Shown here in pieces: positions 15,906-18,956 of a stretch of 38,195 bases of DNA. The notes beneath the pieces are model-generated. The model had not been told where the DNA came from. It worked only from the letters and a program-made list of their open reading frames with translations, and did no database searches. The position numbers were made by a program, and so were the translations under genes. Positions within the stretch are counted from its first letter, which is position 1; every line of letters starts with the position of its first letter. The stretch is from Acidimicrobiia bacterium (GTDB lineage: Bacteria; Actinomycetota; Acidimicrobiia; Spongiisociales; UBA5794): NCBI GenBank assembly GCA_030066755.1, contig JASJAX010000036.1:1-38195 (forward strand). The letters are read 5' to 3'.

Positions 15906-15925
15906 GGCAAGACCACCCAGTCTCT

Positions 15926-15977
15926 GTACTCAGTACTCCGTACTCGGTACTCAGTACTCCGGCGACTCCGTCGCCGG
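15926..15977 (-). repeat. Hairpin plus heptad element D2
   Basis: Minus strand: CCGGCGAC-GGA-GTCGCCGG (15977-15959), then AGTACTG AGTACCG AGTACGG AGTACTG AGTACAG. Confidence 0.88.
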
Positions 15978-16967
15978 CTACAGCTTGTTCAGGCCGATGG
16001 CGGTGCGGACTTCTCGCATGTAGTGCTCGGCTTGGGCTTCGGCACGCTCCGCCCCGTCGGCGAGGACCTTCACGATGTCCCCGTCGTCGAGCTCGTTGTA
16101 GCGCTCACGGATCGGCGTGAGTAGGTCGACCAGCGCGTCGGCAACGGCGAGTTTGAAGGTGCCGTACCCGCTATCGCCGAACTCGGCAACGAGATCGTCG
16201 ATCGACCGTCCGGTGGCGGCGGACATGATCTCGAGCAGATTGGAGATCCCGGCCTTGTGCTCGGGGTCGTAGCGCACGGTCGGCTCGGAGTCGGTCATGG
16301 CCGATTTGATGCGCTTCACGACCACATCCGGCGGATCGACGATGCCCACGCGGCTCCGCACGTTCTCGTCGGACTTGGACATCTTGGAGGTCGGGTCAGC
16401 GAGCGACATCACTCGCGCCGCCGTCTCCGGGATGAGCGGTTCCGGGATCGGGAAGATGTCGCCGTACCGGTTGTTGAAGCGCTCGGCGAGATCGCGGGTC
16501 ATCTCGAGGTGCTGCTTCTGATCGTCGCCGACCGGAACCAGATTGGCGCGATGGATCAGGATGTCCGCAGCCATGAGGACCGGATACGAGAACAAGCCGA
16601 GGTTGGCGGCATGGCCTTGCGCCAACCGGTCCTTGTACTGCGTCATCCGATTGAGCACGCCCATGGGGGTCATCACTCCGAGGAGCCACGACAGCTCGGC
16701 ATGCTGCGGCACGTAGCTCTGTGCATAGACCAGCGCCCGCTCGGGGTCGATGCCCGTAGCGAGCAGCACCTTGGCCCCGGCGATGCGGTTGCGCCTCAGG
16801 TCATCGGGATCCTGGGGCAAGGTGATGGCGTGCTGATCGACGATGCAGTAGATCGTGTCGTACTCGTCCTGGAGACGTACCCAGTTGCGGAAGGCACCGA
16901 GGTAGGTACCGATGTGCATCTCCCCGGTGGGTTGCACTCCCGAGAAGACCCGTTGCTTCGTGCTCAA
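15978..16967 (-). CDS. trpS: Tryptophanyl-tRNA synthetase
   Basis: RVFSGVQPTGEMHIGTYLGAFRNWV; DPTSKMSKSDENVRSRVGIVD (KMSKS). Confidence 0.98.
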   Translation of the reverse strand: MSTKQRVFSGVQPTGEMHIGTYLGAFRNWVRLQDEYDTIYCIVDQHAITLPQDPDDLRRNRIAGAKVLLATGIDPERALVYAQSYVPQHAELSWLLGVMTPMGVLNRMTQYKDRLAQGHAANLGLFSYPVLMAADILIHRANLVPVGDDQKQHLEMTRDLAERFNNRYGDIFPIPEPLIPETAARVMSLADPTSKMSKSDENVRSRVGIVDPPDVVVKRIKSAMTDSEPTVRYDPEHKAGISNLLEIMSAATGRSIDDLVAEFGDSGYGTFKLAVADALVDLLTPIRERYNELDDGDIVKVLADGAERAEAQAEHYMREVRTAIGLNKL

Positions 16968-17026: not shown

Positions 17027-17064
17027 CACAAGAAACCGCCGGGGCTGCGAGGAGCCACCGGCGG
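17027..17064 (-). terminator. Intrinsic terminator (3:4 hairpin) of the trpS attenuator
   Basis: Minus strand CCGCCGG-T-GGCT-CCTCGC-AGCC-CCGGCGG followed by TTTCTTGTG. Confidence 0.8.
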
Positions 17065-17086
17065 CGTCACCGCGCGCGAGGTGGCC

Positions 17087-17125
17087 TCAGTTCGGCCAAA
17101 CCCAGCGATCGGTGCGTGCGTTCAT
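17087..17125 (-). CDS. trpS leader peptide MNARTDRWVWPN*
   Basis: ATG AAC GCA CGC ACC GAT CGC TGG GTT TGG CCG AAC TGA on minus strand; two Trp codons; followed by competing hairpins and a terminator. Confidence 0.85.
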   Translation of the reverse strand: MNARTDRWVWPN

Positions 17126-17131
17126 GGGGCG

Positions 17132-17160
17132 AGGTTACCGAGCCACCTGATCAGTGGCAA
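17132..17160 (-). promoter_or_regulatory. Candidate promoter for the trpS leader
   Basis: Minus strand TTGCCA (17160-17155) - 17 nt - TAACCT (17137-17132), 6 nt before the leader ATG. Confidence 0.5.
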
Positions 17161-17179
17161 CGCCGCACACCCCGAGAGA

Positions 17180-17208
17180 TTGACGGCCACCGACGCCCCC
17201 GGCATACT
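17180..17208 (+). promoter_or_regulatory. Candidate promoter for the cimA leader
   Basis: TTGACG (17180-17185) - 17 nt - CATACT (17203-17208), 7 nt before the leader ATG at 17216. Confidence 0.5.
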
Positions 17209-17215
17209 GCCCGCC

Positions 17216-17254
17216 ATGGTGAGTATCGCCGGCAACGGCATCGAGATTACGTAG
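17216..17254 (+). CDS. Candidate cimA leader peptide MVSIAGNGIEIT*
   Basis: ATG GTG AGT ATC GCC GGC AAC GGC ATC GAG ATT ACG TAG; three Ile codons and one Val in 12; precedes an isoleucine-pathway gene and a hairpin with a T-rich tail. Confidence 0.65.
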   Translation: MVSIAGNGIEIT

Positions 17255-17288
17255 GCGTACATGCCGCTCGAGCGGCGTGTACGCCGCT
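17254..17288 (+). promoter_or_regulatory. Alternative hairpins in the cimA leader
   Basis: 17254-17268 pairs with 17271-17285 (15 bp, one G-T wobble); 17271-17277 (AGCGGCG) can instead pair with 17282-17288 (CGCCGCT). Confidence 0.6.
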
Positions 17289-17291
17289 GCG

Positions 17292-17316
17292 ACCCTCCGG
17301 AGACGGAGGGTTTCTC
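17292..17316 (+). terminator. Candidate intrinsic terminator upstream of cimA
   Basis: ACCCTCCG-GAGA-CGGAGGGT followed by TTCTC. Confidence 0.65.
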
Positions 17317-17333
17317 ATTGCTCAGGACCACCC

Positions 17334-17368
17334 AGCCGCCAGCCGATACCACGTAGCCAGGAGCCAGC
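17334..17368 (+). repeat. Degenerate heptad array H abutting the cimA start codon
   Basis: AGCCGCC AGCCGAT ACCACGT AGCCAGG AGCCAGC, then C ATG (17370). Confidence 0.6.
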
Positions 17369-17369
17369 C

Positions 17370-18956
17370 ATGACGACCCCCCGAGTCGAGATCTACGACA
17401 CCACGTTGCGCGACGGGACCCAACAGGAAGGGATCTCGTTGACCGCAGGCGACAAGCTCGAAGTCGCGCGCCTGCTCGATCAGCTCGGGGTGGCCTACAT
17501 CGAAGGCGGCTGGCCGGGCGCCAACCCGAAGGACGACGAATTCTTCCGGCGCGCCCAAACCGAGCTGAAGCTCGAGACGTCGACGTTGGTCGCATTCGGA
17601 AGTACCCGCCGAGCCAACACCAATCCCGCCGACGACGAGCAGCTCGCAGCCCTCCTGGCCGCCGAGACGGACGTGATCTGCCTGGTCGGCAAGTCGTGGG
17701 ATTACCACGTCGAACACGCGCTCCGGACCTCACCGGCCGAGGCCGTTGCGATGGTGGCCGACTCGATCGAGTATCTCCGCAGTCAAGGTCGCCAGGTGTT
17801 CTTCGACGCAGAGCACTTCTTCGACGGCTACCGGGCCAACCCGGACTTCGCCGCAGCCGTGCTCCAGGCCGCCCACGAGTCCGGGGCCGAGCGTCTCGTC
17901 CTATGCGACACGAACGGTGGGTTCCTCGCCCACGAGGTCGAGCGGATCGTCGGCGAAATGACCGACCGGATCCCCGATGCAGTATTCGGGTGCCACTTCC
18001 ACAACGACTCGGGGATGGCAGTCGGCAATTCGCTGACTGCGGTCCGTACCGGCGTGTATCAGGTGCAGGGATGTATCAACGGCTACGGCGAACGCACCGG
18101 CAACGCCGACCTGTGCTCGGTGATCCCCAACCTCGCCCTCAAGATGGGCTACGAGGTCATCCCCGAAGGCCACCTGCCGCACCTCACCCGGGTTTCCCAT
18201 CACCTCTCGGAGATCGTGAACCTCACCCTCGATCCCCATCTCCCCTACGTCGGAGTGTCGGCGTTCACCCACAAGGCCGGGCTGCACACGTCGGCACTGG
18301 CCCGCCGGCCCGATGCCTACGAGCACCTCAACCCCGACTCGATCGGAAACGCCACCCGGGTCGTGGTGTCCGAGCTGGCCGGTCGGTCGACGGTGCTCGC
18401 CAAAGCCGAAGCCCAGGGTCTCGAACTCACCGCCGAGGATGCGCAAGCCGTTGTGGACCGCATCAAGGAGCTCGAGCACGACGGGTACCAGTTCGAGGCA
18501 GCCGATGGGTCGTTCGAGCTCCTCCTGCGCGAGGTGCAGGGATGGACTCAGCCCTTCTTCGAACTCGAGTCGTATCGGGTGTTCGTCGAGCAGCGAGCTG
18601 GTGAGGTCGTGGCCGAGGCCACGGTCAAGGTCCACGTCGCCGGAGAACGGATGGTCACCACGAAGGAGGGCGACGGCCCGGTGTCGGCGCTCGACCGGGC
18701 GCTCCGCGCTGCGTTGCGCACGGCGTACCCCCAGATCGACCGCATGCGGTTGGTCGACTACCGCGTGCGGGACCTCGACTCGTCGGATGGCACATCAGCG
18801 CGAGTCCGGGTTCTGATCGAGCACGCCGACGTGGGCGCGCAATGGGGCACCGTCGGTGTGCACGAGAACATCATCGATGCATCATGGAAGGCCCTCGCCG
18901 AAGGTGTGGTCATCGGTCTGCTGCGGTATGAAGAGCGAAACGGGAACTCGGCCTGA
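17370..18956 (+). CDS. cimA: Citramalate synthase
   Basis: VEIYDTTLRDGTQQEGISLTAGDKLEVARLLDQLGVAYIEGGWPGANPKD is a cimA hallmark; C-terminal LeuA allosteric domain; start at ATG 17370 rather than the track's 17277. Confidence 0.95.
   Translation: MTTPRVEIYDTTLRDGTQQEGISLTAGDKLEVARLLDQLGVAYIEGGWPGANPKDDEFFRRAQTELKLETSTLVAFGSTRRANTNPADDEQLAALLAAETDVICLVGKSWDYHVEHALRTSPAEAVAMVADSIEYLRSQGRQVFFDAEHFFDGYRANPDFAAAVLQAAHESGAERLVLCDTNGGFLAHEVERIVGEMTDRIPDAVFGCHFHNDSGMAVGNSLTAVRTGVYQVQGCINGYGERTGNADLCSVIPNLALKMGYEVIPEGHLPHLTRVSHHLSEIVNLTLDPHLPYVGVSAFTHKAGLHTSALARRPDAYEHLNPDSIGNATRVVVSELAGRSTVLAKAEAQGLELTAEDAQAVVDRIKELEHDGYQFEAADGSFELLLREVQGWTQPFFELESYRVFVEQRAGEVVAEATVKVHVAGERMVTTKEGDGPVSALDRALRAALRTAYPQIDRMRLVDYRVRDLDSSDGTSARVRVLIEHADVGAQWGTVGVHENIIDASWKALAEGVVIGLLRYEERNGNSA

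What the first reader, a model, noticed from the sequence alone, without database searches (positions are those of the whole stretch)
17087..17254. Two mirrored, apparently leaderless attenuator leaders share one divergent promoter region
Seen: trpS side TTGCCA-17-TAACCT then 6 nt then ATG; cimA side TTGACG-17-CATACT then 7 nt then ATG. The two -35-like boxes lie back to back, 19 bp apart (17161-17179 between them). Both leader ORFs are 39 nt including the stop, and both terminators end in TTTCT-type tails. The spacing puts +1 at or next to each ATG, implying leaderless translation of both peptides. Inference: one short spacer coordinates Trp charging and isoleucine synthesis. I know of no description of this paired arrangement.
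Basis: partly seen in the sequence, partly recalled or inferred. Interest (0 to 1): 0.75.

Follow-up and report, generated by a model that had tools for sequence, protein, structure and literature searches.

The report
Divergent Trp and Ile leader-peptide attenuators
Two neighbouring genes that face away from each other, one for charging tryptophan tRNA and one for making isoleucine, each carry a tiny start-at-the-tip leader peptide plus an RNA stop signal; both switches look real and conserved in relatives, but they work separately and by different RNA designs, and how the isoleucine one flips is not explained by the textbook model.

Summary
Comparison shows that both leaders are real. The Ile leader precedes cimA in 67 of 70 loci, 66 with TTGAC-N16/17-NANACT-like promoters 6-11 nt from ATG/GTG, so leaderless or nearly so. 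Trp leaders precede trpS in 43 of 83 relatives. Divergent trpS-cimA order is old (61 of 64 same-contig genomes), but only 29 of 84 pairs are immediate neighbours. The spacing varies, and many adjacent pairs lack a Trp leader, so a shared spacer coordinating the two pathways is not supported. The leaders are not mechanistic mirrors. trpS carries a classical attenuator, with an antiterminator sharing bases with the terminator. cimA does not: a covarying hairpin starts at the leader stop codon and lies 0-6 nt before the terminator, usually with no shared base. A covariance model trained on cimA finds just one other strong site in this genome, before ilvB (E=6e-10), with the same layout, and 57 of 299 genomes across the phylum. 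The trpS part is a known kind, with leaderless TSSs mapped in Streptomyces. The cimA target and the non-overlapping design look undescribed in the literature searched. Regulation itself is inferred, not shown.

The parts
15978..16967 (-). trpS, tryptophanyl-tRNA synthetase (TTG start; SD-like GGACGGAG just upstream)
   Evidence: TIGR00233 above cut-off; sequence
17029..17068 (-). intrinsic terminator of the trpS leader (stem GCCGCCGG..CCGGCGG, tail TTTCTTG)
   Evidence: conserved ACGCCGG..CCGGCGTTTT in relatives
17054..17085 (-). antiterminator of the trpS leader, GCCACC (17085-17080) pairing GGTGGC (17059-17054); its 3' arm shares 6 of 6 bases with the terminator 5' arm
   Evidence: 40 of 43 relatives have such a helix, 32 different 5' arm sequences
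17087..17125 (-). Trp leader ORF MNARTDRWVWPN*
   Evidence: WW/WWW leaders upstream of trpS in relatives
17132..17160 (-). promoter of the trpS leader: TTGCCA-17-TAACCT, ending 6 nt before the ATG
   Evidence: -10 4-11 nt (mostly 6-9) before the leader start in relatives
17180..17208 (+). promoter of the cimA leader: TTGACG-17-CATACT, ending 7 nt before the ATG
   Evidence: TTGAC plus NANACT-like -10, spacer 16-17, in 66 of 67 loci
17216..17254 (+). Ile leader ORF MVSIAGNGIEIT*
   Evidence: Ile leaders before cimA in 67 of 70 loci
17254..17285 (+). hairpin A, starting at the last base of the leader stop codon
   Evidence: covariation
17291..17320 (+). hairpin B, intrinsic terminator (GACCCTCCG GAGA CGGAGGGTT plus tail TCTCATTG)
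17359..17363 (+). AGGAG, Shine-Dalgarno-like sequence of cimA
17370..18956 (+). cimA, citramalate synthase (first step of the threonine-independent isoleucine route)
   Evidence: TIGR00977 above cut-off

Best explanation
Two independent ribosome-sensing leaders on divergent genes, each transcribed from its own promoter that starts at or within about 5 nt of a leader start codon (leaderless). trpS side: a ribosome slowed at the Trp codons leaves the sequence right after the stop codon free, so GCCACC:GGTGGC forms and takes the 5' arm of the terminator (readthrough, trpS on); a ribosome at the stop codon covers GCCACC, the terminator forms and trpS is off. cimA side: the same ribosome positions decide whether hairpin A, which begins at the stop codon, can form (free when stalled at Ile, covered at the stop), and the terminator B follows within 0-6 nt. 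Presumably Ile shortage raises readthrough into cimA and, through the same element, into ilvB. How A opposes B without sharing its bases is unknown; likely candidates are a pausing or steric action of A on RNA polymerase. Shown by sequence: anatomy, conservation, covariation, promoter distance, presence or absence of base sharing. Inferred: transcription start sites, direction of response, role of A.
For: Anatomy and folds. Ile leaders in 67 of 70 cimA loci: 58 ATG and 9 GTG starts, TTGAC-16/17-NANACT-like promoter 6-11 nt upstream, the last Ile codon one residue before the stop in 61 of 67. Trp leaders in 43 of 83 trpS upstreams. Before the terminator 3' arm is made, its 5' arm and loop are paired upstream 0.68 when the ribosome is stalled, against 0.51 in shuffles and 0.34 at the stop (trpS), but 0.08, 0.35 and 0.27 for cimA and 0.08, 0.32 and 0.27 for ilvB. 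Antiterminator helices in 40 of 43 trpS leaders with 32 different 5' arms. A and B covary: score 0.301 against 0.201 shuffled, 0 of 500; 7 of 9 A pairs changed on both sides. The cimA-trained model R1 finds only cimA (1.3e-11) and ilvB (5.8e-10) in the own genome, next 0.75; 54 of 60 relatives; 57 of 299 phylum genomes. Precedents: leaderless trpL2 before trpS, TSS-mapped in S. lividans (PMC8079986); BCAA codons of the M. tuberculosis ilvB1 uORF needed for induction (PMC13236596).
Against: No expression data. In the complete transcripts terminator B is predicted to form whatever the ribosome position (about 0.9), so the cimA switch is not explained by equilibrium folding. The full trpS terminator is also usually the more stable state, so that side relies on co-transcriptional timing. 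In this species the Ile codons are spaced (I....I.I) and not in a run, so sensing may be weaker.
Confidence: 0.75

Rival explanations
1. The short spacer is a coordination device: the two promoters are kept back to back so that RNA polymerase or a regulator at one side controls the other, linking Trp charging to Ile synthesis.
For: -35 boxes 19 bp apart, so polymerase footprints would overlap; divergent order is old; short ATG-ATG distances (73-196 nt) in 9 of the loci that keep both leaders.
Against: Spacing is not conserved (73 to 2163 nt between leader ATGs); genes 5.4 kb apart in the closest CimA relatives; nine adjacent pairs lack the Trp leader.
Confidence: 0.07
2. Hairpin A of cimA is a conventional antiterminator that overlaps the base of the terminator, as proposed for the three-nucleotide overlap in C. 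glutamicum ilvBNC.
For: Same position relative to stop codon and terminator; that mutational study supports a three-hairpin model (PMC11857589); 7 of 67 A hairpins can extend 1-4 nt into B.
Against: 60 of 67 have no overlap when A is free to extend; terminator 5' arm pairing upstream is 0.08, below shuffled 0.35.
Confidence: 0.2
3. Hairpin A is a DNA operator palindrome or a plain stabilising hairpin, and cimA is regulated otherwise.
For: A is an inverted repeat whose stem often reads GCGCAYACG..CGTRTGCGC.
Against: A starts within -3 to 0 nt of the leader stop codon in 67 of 67 and B follows at 1-6 nt; compensatory changes in 7 of 9 pairs; same layout at ilvB behind a BCAA leader.
Confidence: 0.08
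4. The leaders are not leaderless; transcription starts further upstream.
For: No mapped start sites; the ilvB leader of this same genome has its -10 about 26 nt before the ATG.
Against: TTGAC plus NANACT-like boxes at constant distance in 66 of 67 cimA loci, only ATG/GTG starts, and no space for a Shine-Dalgarno between -10 and ATG.
Confidence: 0.12

Closest known systems
trpS attenuators of Streptomyces (S. avermitilis trpS2; S. lividans trpL2, leaderless by RNA-seq)
   Same: Trp-codon leader peptide, hairpins before trpS, leaderless leader (PMC1262725; PMC8079986)
   Different: Other class of Actinomycetota; here a clear U-tract terminator and usually WW/WWW; divergent to cimA
Corynebacterium ilvBNC leader / ilvB-II motif
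   Same: BCAA leader peptide, near-leaderless start, two or three stem-loops before ilvB (PMC11857589; PMC10272879)
   Different: There an antiterminator that overlaps the terminator or pairs with part of its stem is proposed; here A and B share no bases in most loci, and cimA (Ile-only codons) is also a target
M. tuberculosis ilvB1 uORF attenuator
   Same: LVVI regulatory codons, ribosome at the stop blocks the upstream hairpin (PMC13236596)
   Different: Described as mutually exclusive terminator and antiterminator; 166-nt leader; not cimA
Leaderless poly-Cys short ORFs of mycobacteria (Canestrari 2020, known here only from the reference list of PMC13236596)
   Same: Leaderless regulatory leader peptide in Actinomycetota
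   Different: Cys and translational control (per PMC13236596)
E. coli trp/his leaders (own knowledge)
   Same: trpS side works like the trp attenuator
   Different: Leader there has a Shine-Dalgarno; cimA side lacks the 2:3 antiterminator

Membership tests
Classical (trp-type) transcription attenuator: trpS leader | short ORF with codons for the sensed amino acid | tested here: met
   WVW here; Trp leaders in 43 of 83 trpS upstreams
Classical (trp-type) transcription attenuator: trpS leader | intrinsic terminator between leader and gene | tested here: met
   (sequence and fold only)
Classical (trp-type) transcription attenuator: trpS leader | antiterminator sharing bases with the terminator, free on stalling, covered at the stop | tested here: met
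Classical (trp-type) transcription attenuator: trpS leader | readthrough rises on Trp starvation | not testable with these tools
   no expression data
Classical (trp-type) transcription attenuator: cimA leader | leader ORF with Ile codons and intrinsic terminator | tested here: met
Classical (trp-type) transcription attenuator: cimA leader | antiterminator sharing bases with the terminator | tested here: not met
   0.08 against 0.35 shuffled; no overlap in 60 of 67; B forms in all ribosome states
Leaderless leader peptide | -10 box 6-7 nt before ATG/GTG, no Shine-Dalgarno | tested here: met
   6 and 7 nt here; 6-11 nt in relatives
Leaderless leader peptide | mapped transcription start at the start codon | not testable with these tools
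   no dRNA-seq for these organisms found
Known Rfam RNA families | match above gathering score | tested here: not met
Coupled divergent control region | conserved short spacing with both leaders | tested here: not met

The most novel reading that the evidence does not exclude
A widespread actinobacterial leader-peptide switch (cimA, ilvB, and leuB-like genes) in which a ribosome-gated hairpin starting at the leader stop codon prevents intrinsic termination 0-6 nt downstream without sharing bases with the terminator, i.e. by acting on RNA polymerase (pausing or steric antitermination), not by competing base pairing. A pause-type YG dinucleotide is enriched exactly 11/12 nt after hairpin A (40% of loci against 4-28% at neighbouring offsets).
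Probability: 0.3. Interest if true: 0.75.

Novelty: new variant of a known kind. Interest (0 to 1): 0.5.

Why it matters
It extends leader-peptide attenuation to citramalate synthase in an uncultured Acidimicrobiia order and supplies 67 cimA and 29 ilvB natural variants in which the terminator and the ribosome-gated hairpin mostly do not overlap. If regulation is confirmed, the rule that attenuation needs two mutually exclusive hairpins would not hold for this element, and older puzzles in actinobacterial ilvB leaders (regulatory codons without a clear antiterminator, noted in PMC1262725) would become directly testable.

Tried and rejected
Rfam matches: none credible. Equilibrium folding with ribosome masks as a test of switching: uninformative for both leaders, replaced by folding of the transcript before the terminator 3' arm. 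A wider set of named genomes: Ile-run leaders appear only in the same order and in Candidatus Actinomarina by the III-run criterion. leuA in the own genome shows no convincing leader and trpE is fragmentary. pyrBI-type coupling (ribosome at the stop blocking the terminator) considered and rejected: stop-to-terminator distance is 25-37 nt, where repression is largely gone in E. coli (PMC4824070), and the sign would be wrong.

Full report
OBSERVATION. All base-level statements are right: two 39-nt ORFs, MNARTDRWVWPN on the minus strand (17125-17087) and MVSIAGNGIEIT on the plus strand (17216-17254), promoters TTGCCA-17-TAACCT-6-ATG and TTGACG-17-CATACT-7-ATG, -35 boxes 19 bp apart, and TTTCT-type tails. 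The genes are trpS and citramalate synthase cimA. The cimA leader folds far better than shuffles (z -6.2), the trpS leader moderately (z -2.1). No Rfam family matches.

WHERE. The window is contig 132 of a 211-contig genome assembly. Contigs of its relatives are identical in length to GenBank MAG records titled Acidimicrobiia or Actinomycetes, so this is an uncultured order of Acidimicrobiia; some titles, such as Armatimonadetes for L143, disagree. The class is inferred from those titles.

CONSERVATION OF THE ILE LEADER. Of 70 cimA loci (window plus relatives from the family, the order and two from the wider class), 67 carry an Ile leader such as MSASIIIIA, MTDSTTTTIIIT or MFTPATTIIID. Start codons are only ATG (58) or GTG (9). 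66 of 67 have a TTGAC -35 and a NANACT-like -10 with a 16-17 nt spacer, 6-11 nt before the start codon. That places +1 on or within about five bases of the start codon and leaves no room for a Shine-Dalgarno, the signature of leaderless translation. The last Ile codon sits one residue before the stop in 61 of 67. The window's own leader is degenerate (three spaced Ile codons).

CONSERVATION OF THE TRP LEADER AND SYNTENY. Trp leaders with terminators precede trpS in 43 of 83 distinct upstream regions. In 84 genomes with both genes placed, 61 of the 64 same-contig pairs are divergent and within 12 kb: 29 under 500 bp, 17 at 0.5-3 kb, 15 at 3-12 kb. Thirteen loci have both leaders within 3 kb, with 73 to 2163 nt between the leader ATGs; nine adjacent pairs have the Ile leader but not the Trp leader. 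Some of those have trpS itself directly behind a -10 box (for example L029, L038). The pairing is an old neighbourhood, not a fixed regulatory unit.

TWO DIFFERENT DESIGNS. I folded each transcript as it would be when the terminator 3' arm is not yet made, with the ribosome stalled at the first regulatory codon or sitting at the stop. For trpS the terminator 5' arm and loop are paired to upstream sequence 0.68 when stalled, 0.51 in shuffles (p 3e-9) and 0.34 at the stop (p 8e-12): a classical antiterminator. It is present as a helix of at least 4 bp in 40 of 43 leaders with 32 different 5' arm sequences, and it shares a median of 5 bases with the terminator. For cimA the same number is 0.08 stalled, against 0.35 shuffled (p 2e-12): competition with the terminator is avoided. 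Instead a hairpin A starts -3 to 0 nt from the end of the stop codon in 67 of 67 and the terminator B follows 1-6 nt later (that count forced A to end before B). When A may extend freely, 60 of 67 still do not overlap B, and 7 overlap by 1-4 nt. Both helices covary (0.301 against 0.201, 0 of 500 shuffles; 7 of 9 pairs of A with changes on both sides). The sequences are related, so the shuffle count is not a probability. With full transcripts B forms at about 0.9 whatever the ribosome position.

THE SAME ELEMENT AT ilvB. In the own genome ilvB is preceded by MTRNGIILVLT, hairpin A at the stop and terminator B, although there the -10 is about 26 nt before the ATG, so it is not leaderless. In relatives 29 of 30 ilvB loci show the layout with ILVL-type codons, and the thirtieth (L247) has a model hit. 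A covariance model built from cimA leaders only finds cimA at 1.3e-11 and ilvB at 5.8e-10 in the own genome and nothing else below 0.75. It hits 54 of 60 relatives, 43 of them with two or more sites, and 57 of 299 genomes drawn from the phylum. Downstream genes read there include ilvB, cimA and a leuB-like dehydrogenase behind IIIE or VIIR leaders. Candidatus Actinomarina has MKKIIIII followed by similar hairpins before cimA.

MECHANISM. trpS: classical attenuation, with high confidence as an inference from anatomy. cimA: an Ile-sensing leader with a terminator. By geometry A forms when the ribosome waits at Ile codons and is covered when it reaches the stop, which is exactly the position of an antiterminator, but A takes no bases from B. 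Either A acts on polymerase (pause or steric antitermination; a YG step is enriched 11/12 nt after A, weakly suggestive), or a small overlap at the junction matters as argued for C. glutamicum, or regulation is at another level. The direction of response (Ile shortage turns cimA on) is assumed from pathway logic and from the M. tuberculosis ilvB1 experiments.

COMPARISON WITH WHAT IS KNOWN. Attenuators before trpS in Streptomyces, and leaderless ones with mapped starts, are described. ilvB leaders of Actinobacteria were described with codons and terminators but unclear mechanism. I found no description of a cimA leader or of this gene pair in the searches made; the library holds open-access papers only.

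Noticed in passing
L223 (own genome C202, leader at about 7.2 kb): ilvB carries the same leader-stop-hairpin-terminator element as cimA, leader MTRNGIILVLT, but with a roughly 20-nt 5' UTR.
   Followed up: yes
L181/L182 2917-2995 (Candidatus Actinomarina): cimA preceded by MKKIIIII plus two hairpins and a long U-tract, -10 TAATAT 7 nt before the ATG.
   Followed up: partly
L299, L302, L303, L315: leuB-like dehydrogenase genes in other Acidimicrobiia carry the element with Ile-rich leaders; L314 has it before a prephenate-dehydratase-like ORF.
   Followed up: partly
L029, L038: In several relatives without a Trp leader, trpS itself lies directly behind a TATGCT -10 (probably leaderless trpS).
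   Followed up: no
window 15920-15970; L228 upstream of leuA: Short imperfect intergenic repeats (GTACTC-type; GGTCACA-type) that resemble repeats near trpS in relatives.
   Followed up: no
G035:C187:27223-27294: A third hit of the cimA-trained model, not assigned to cimA or ilvB.
   Followed up: no
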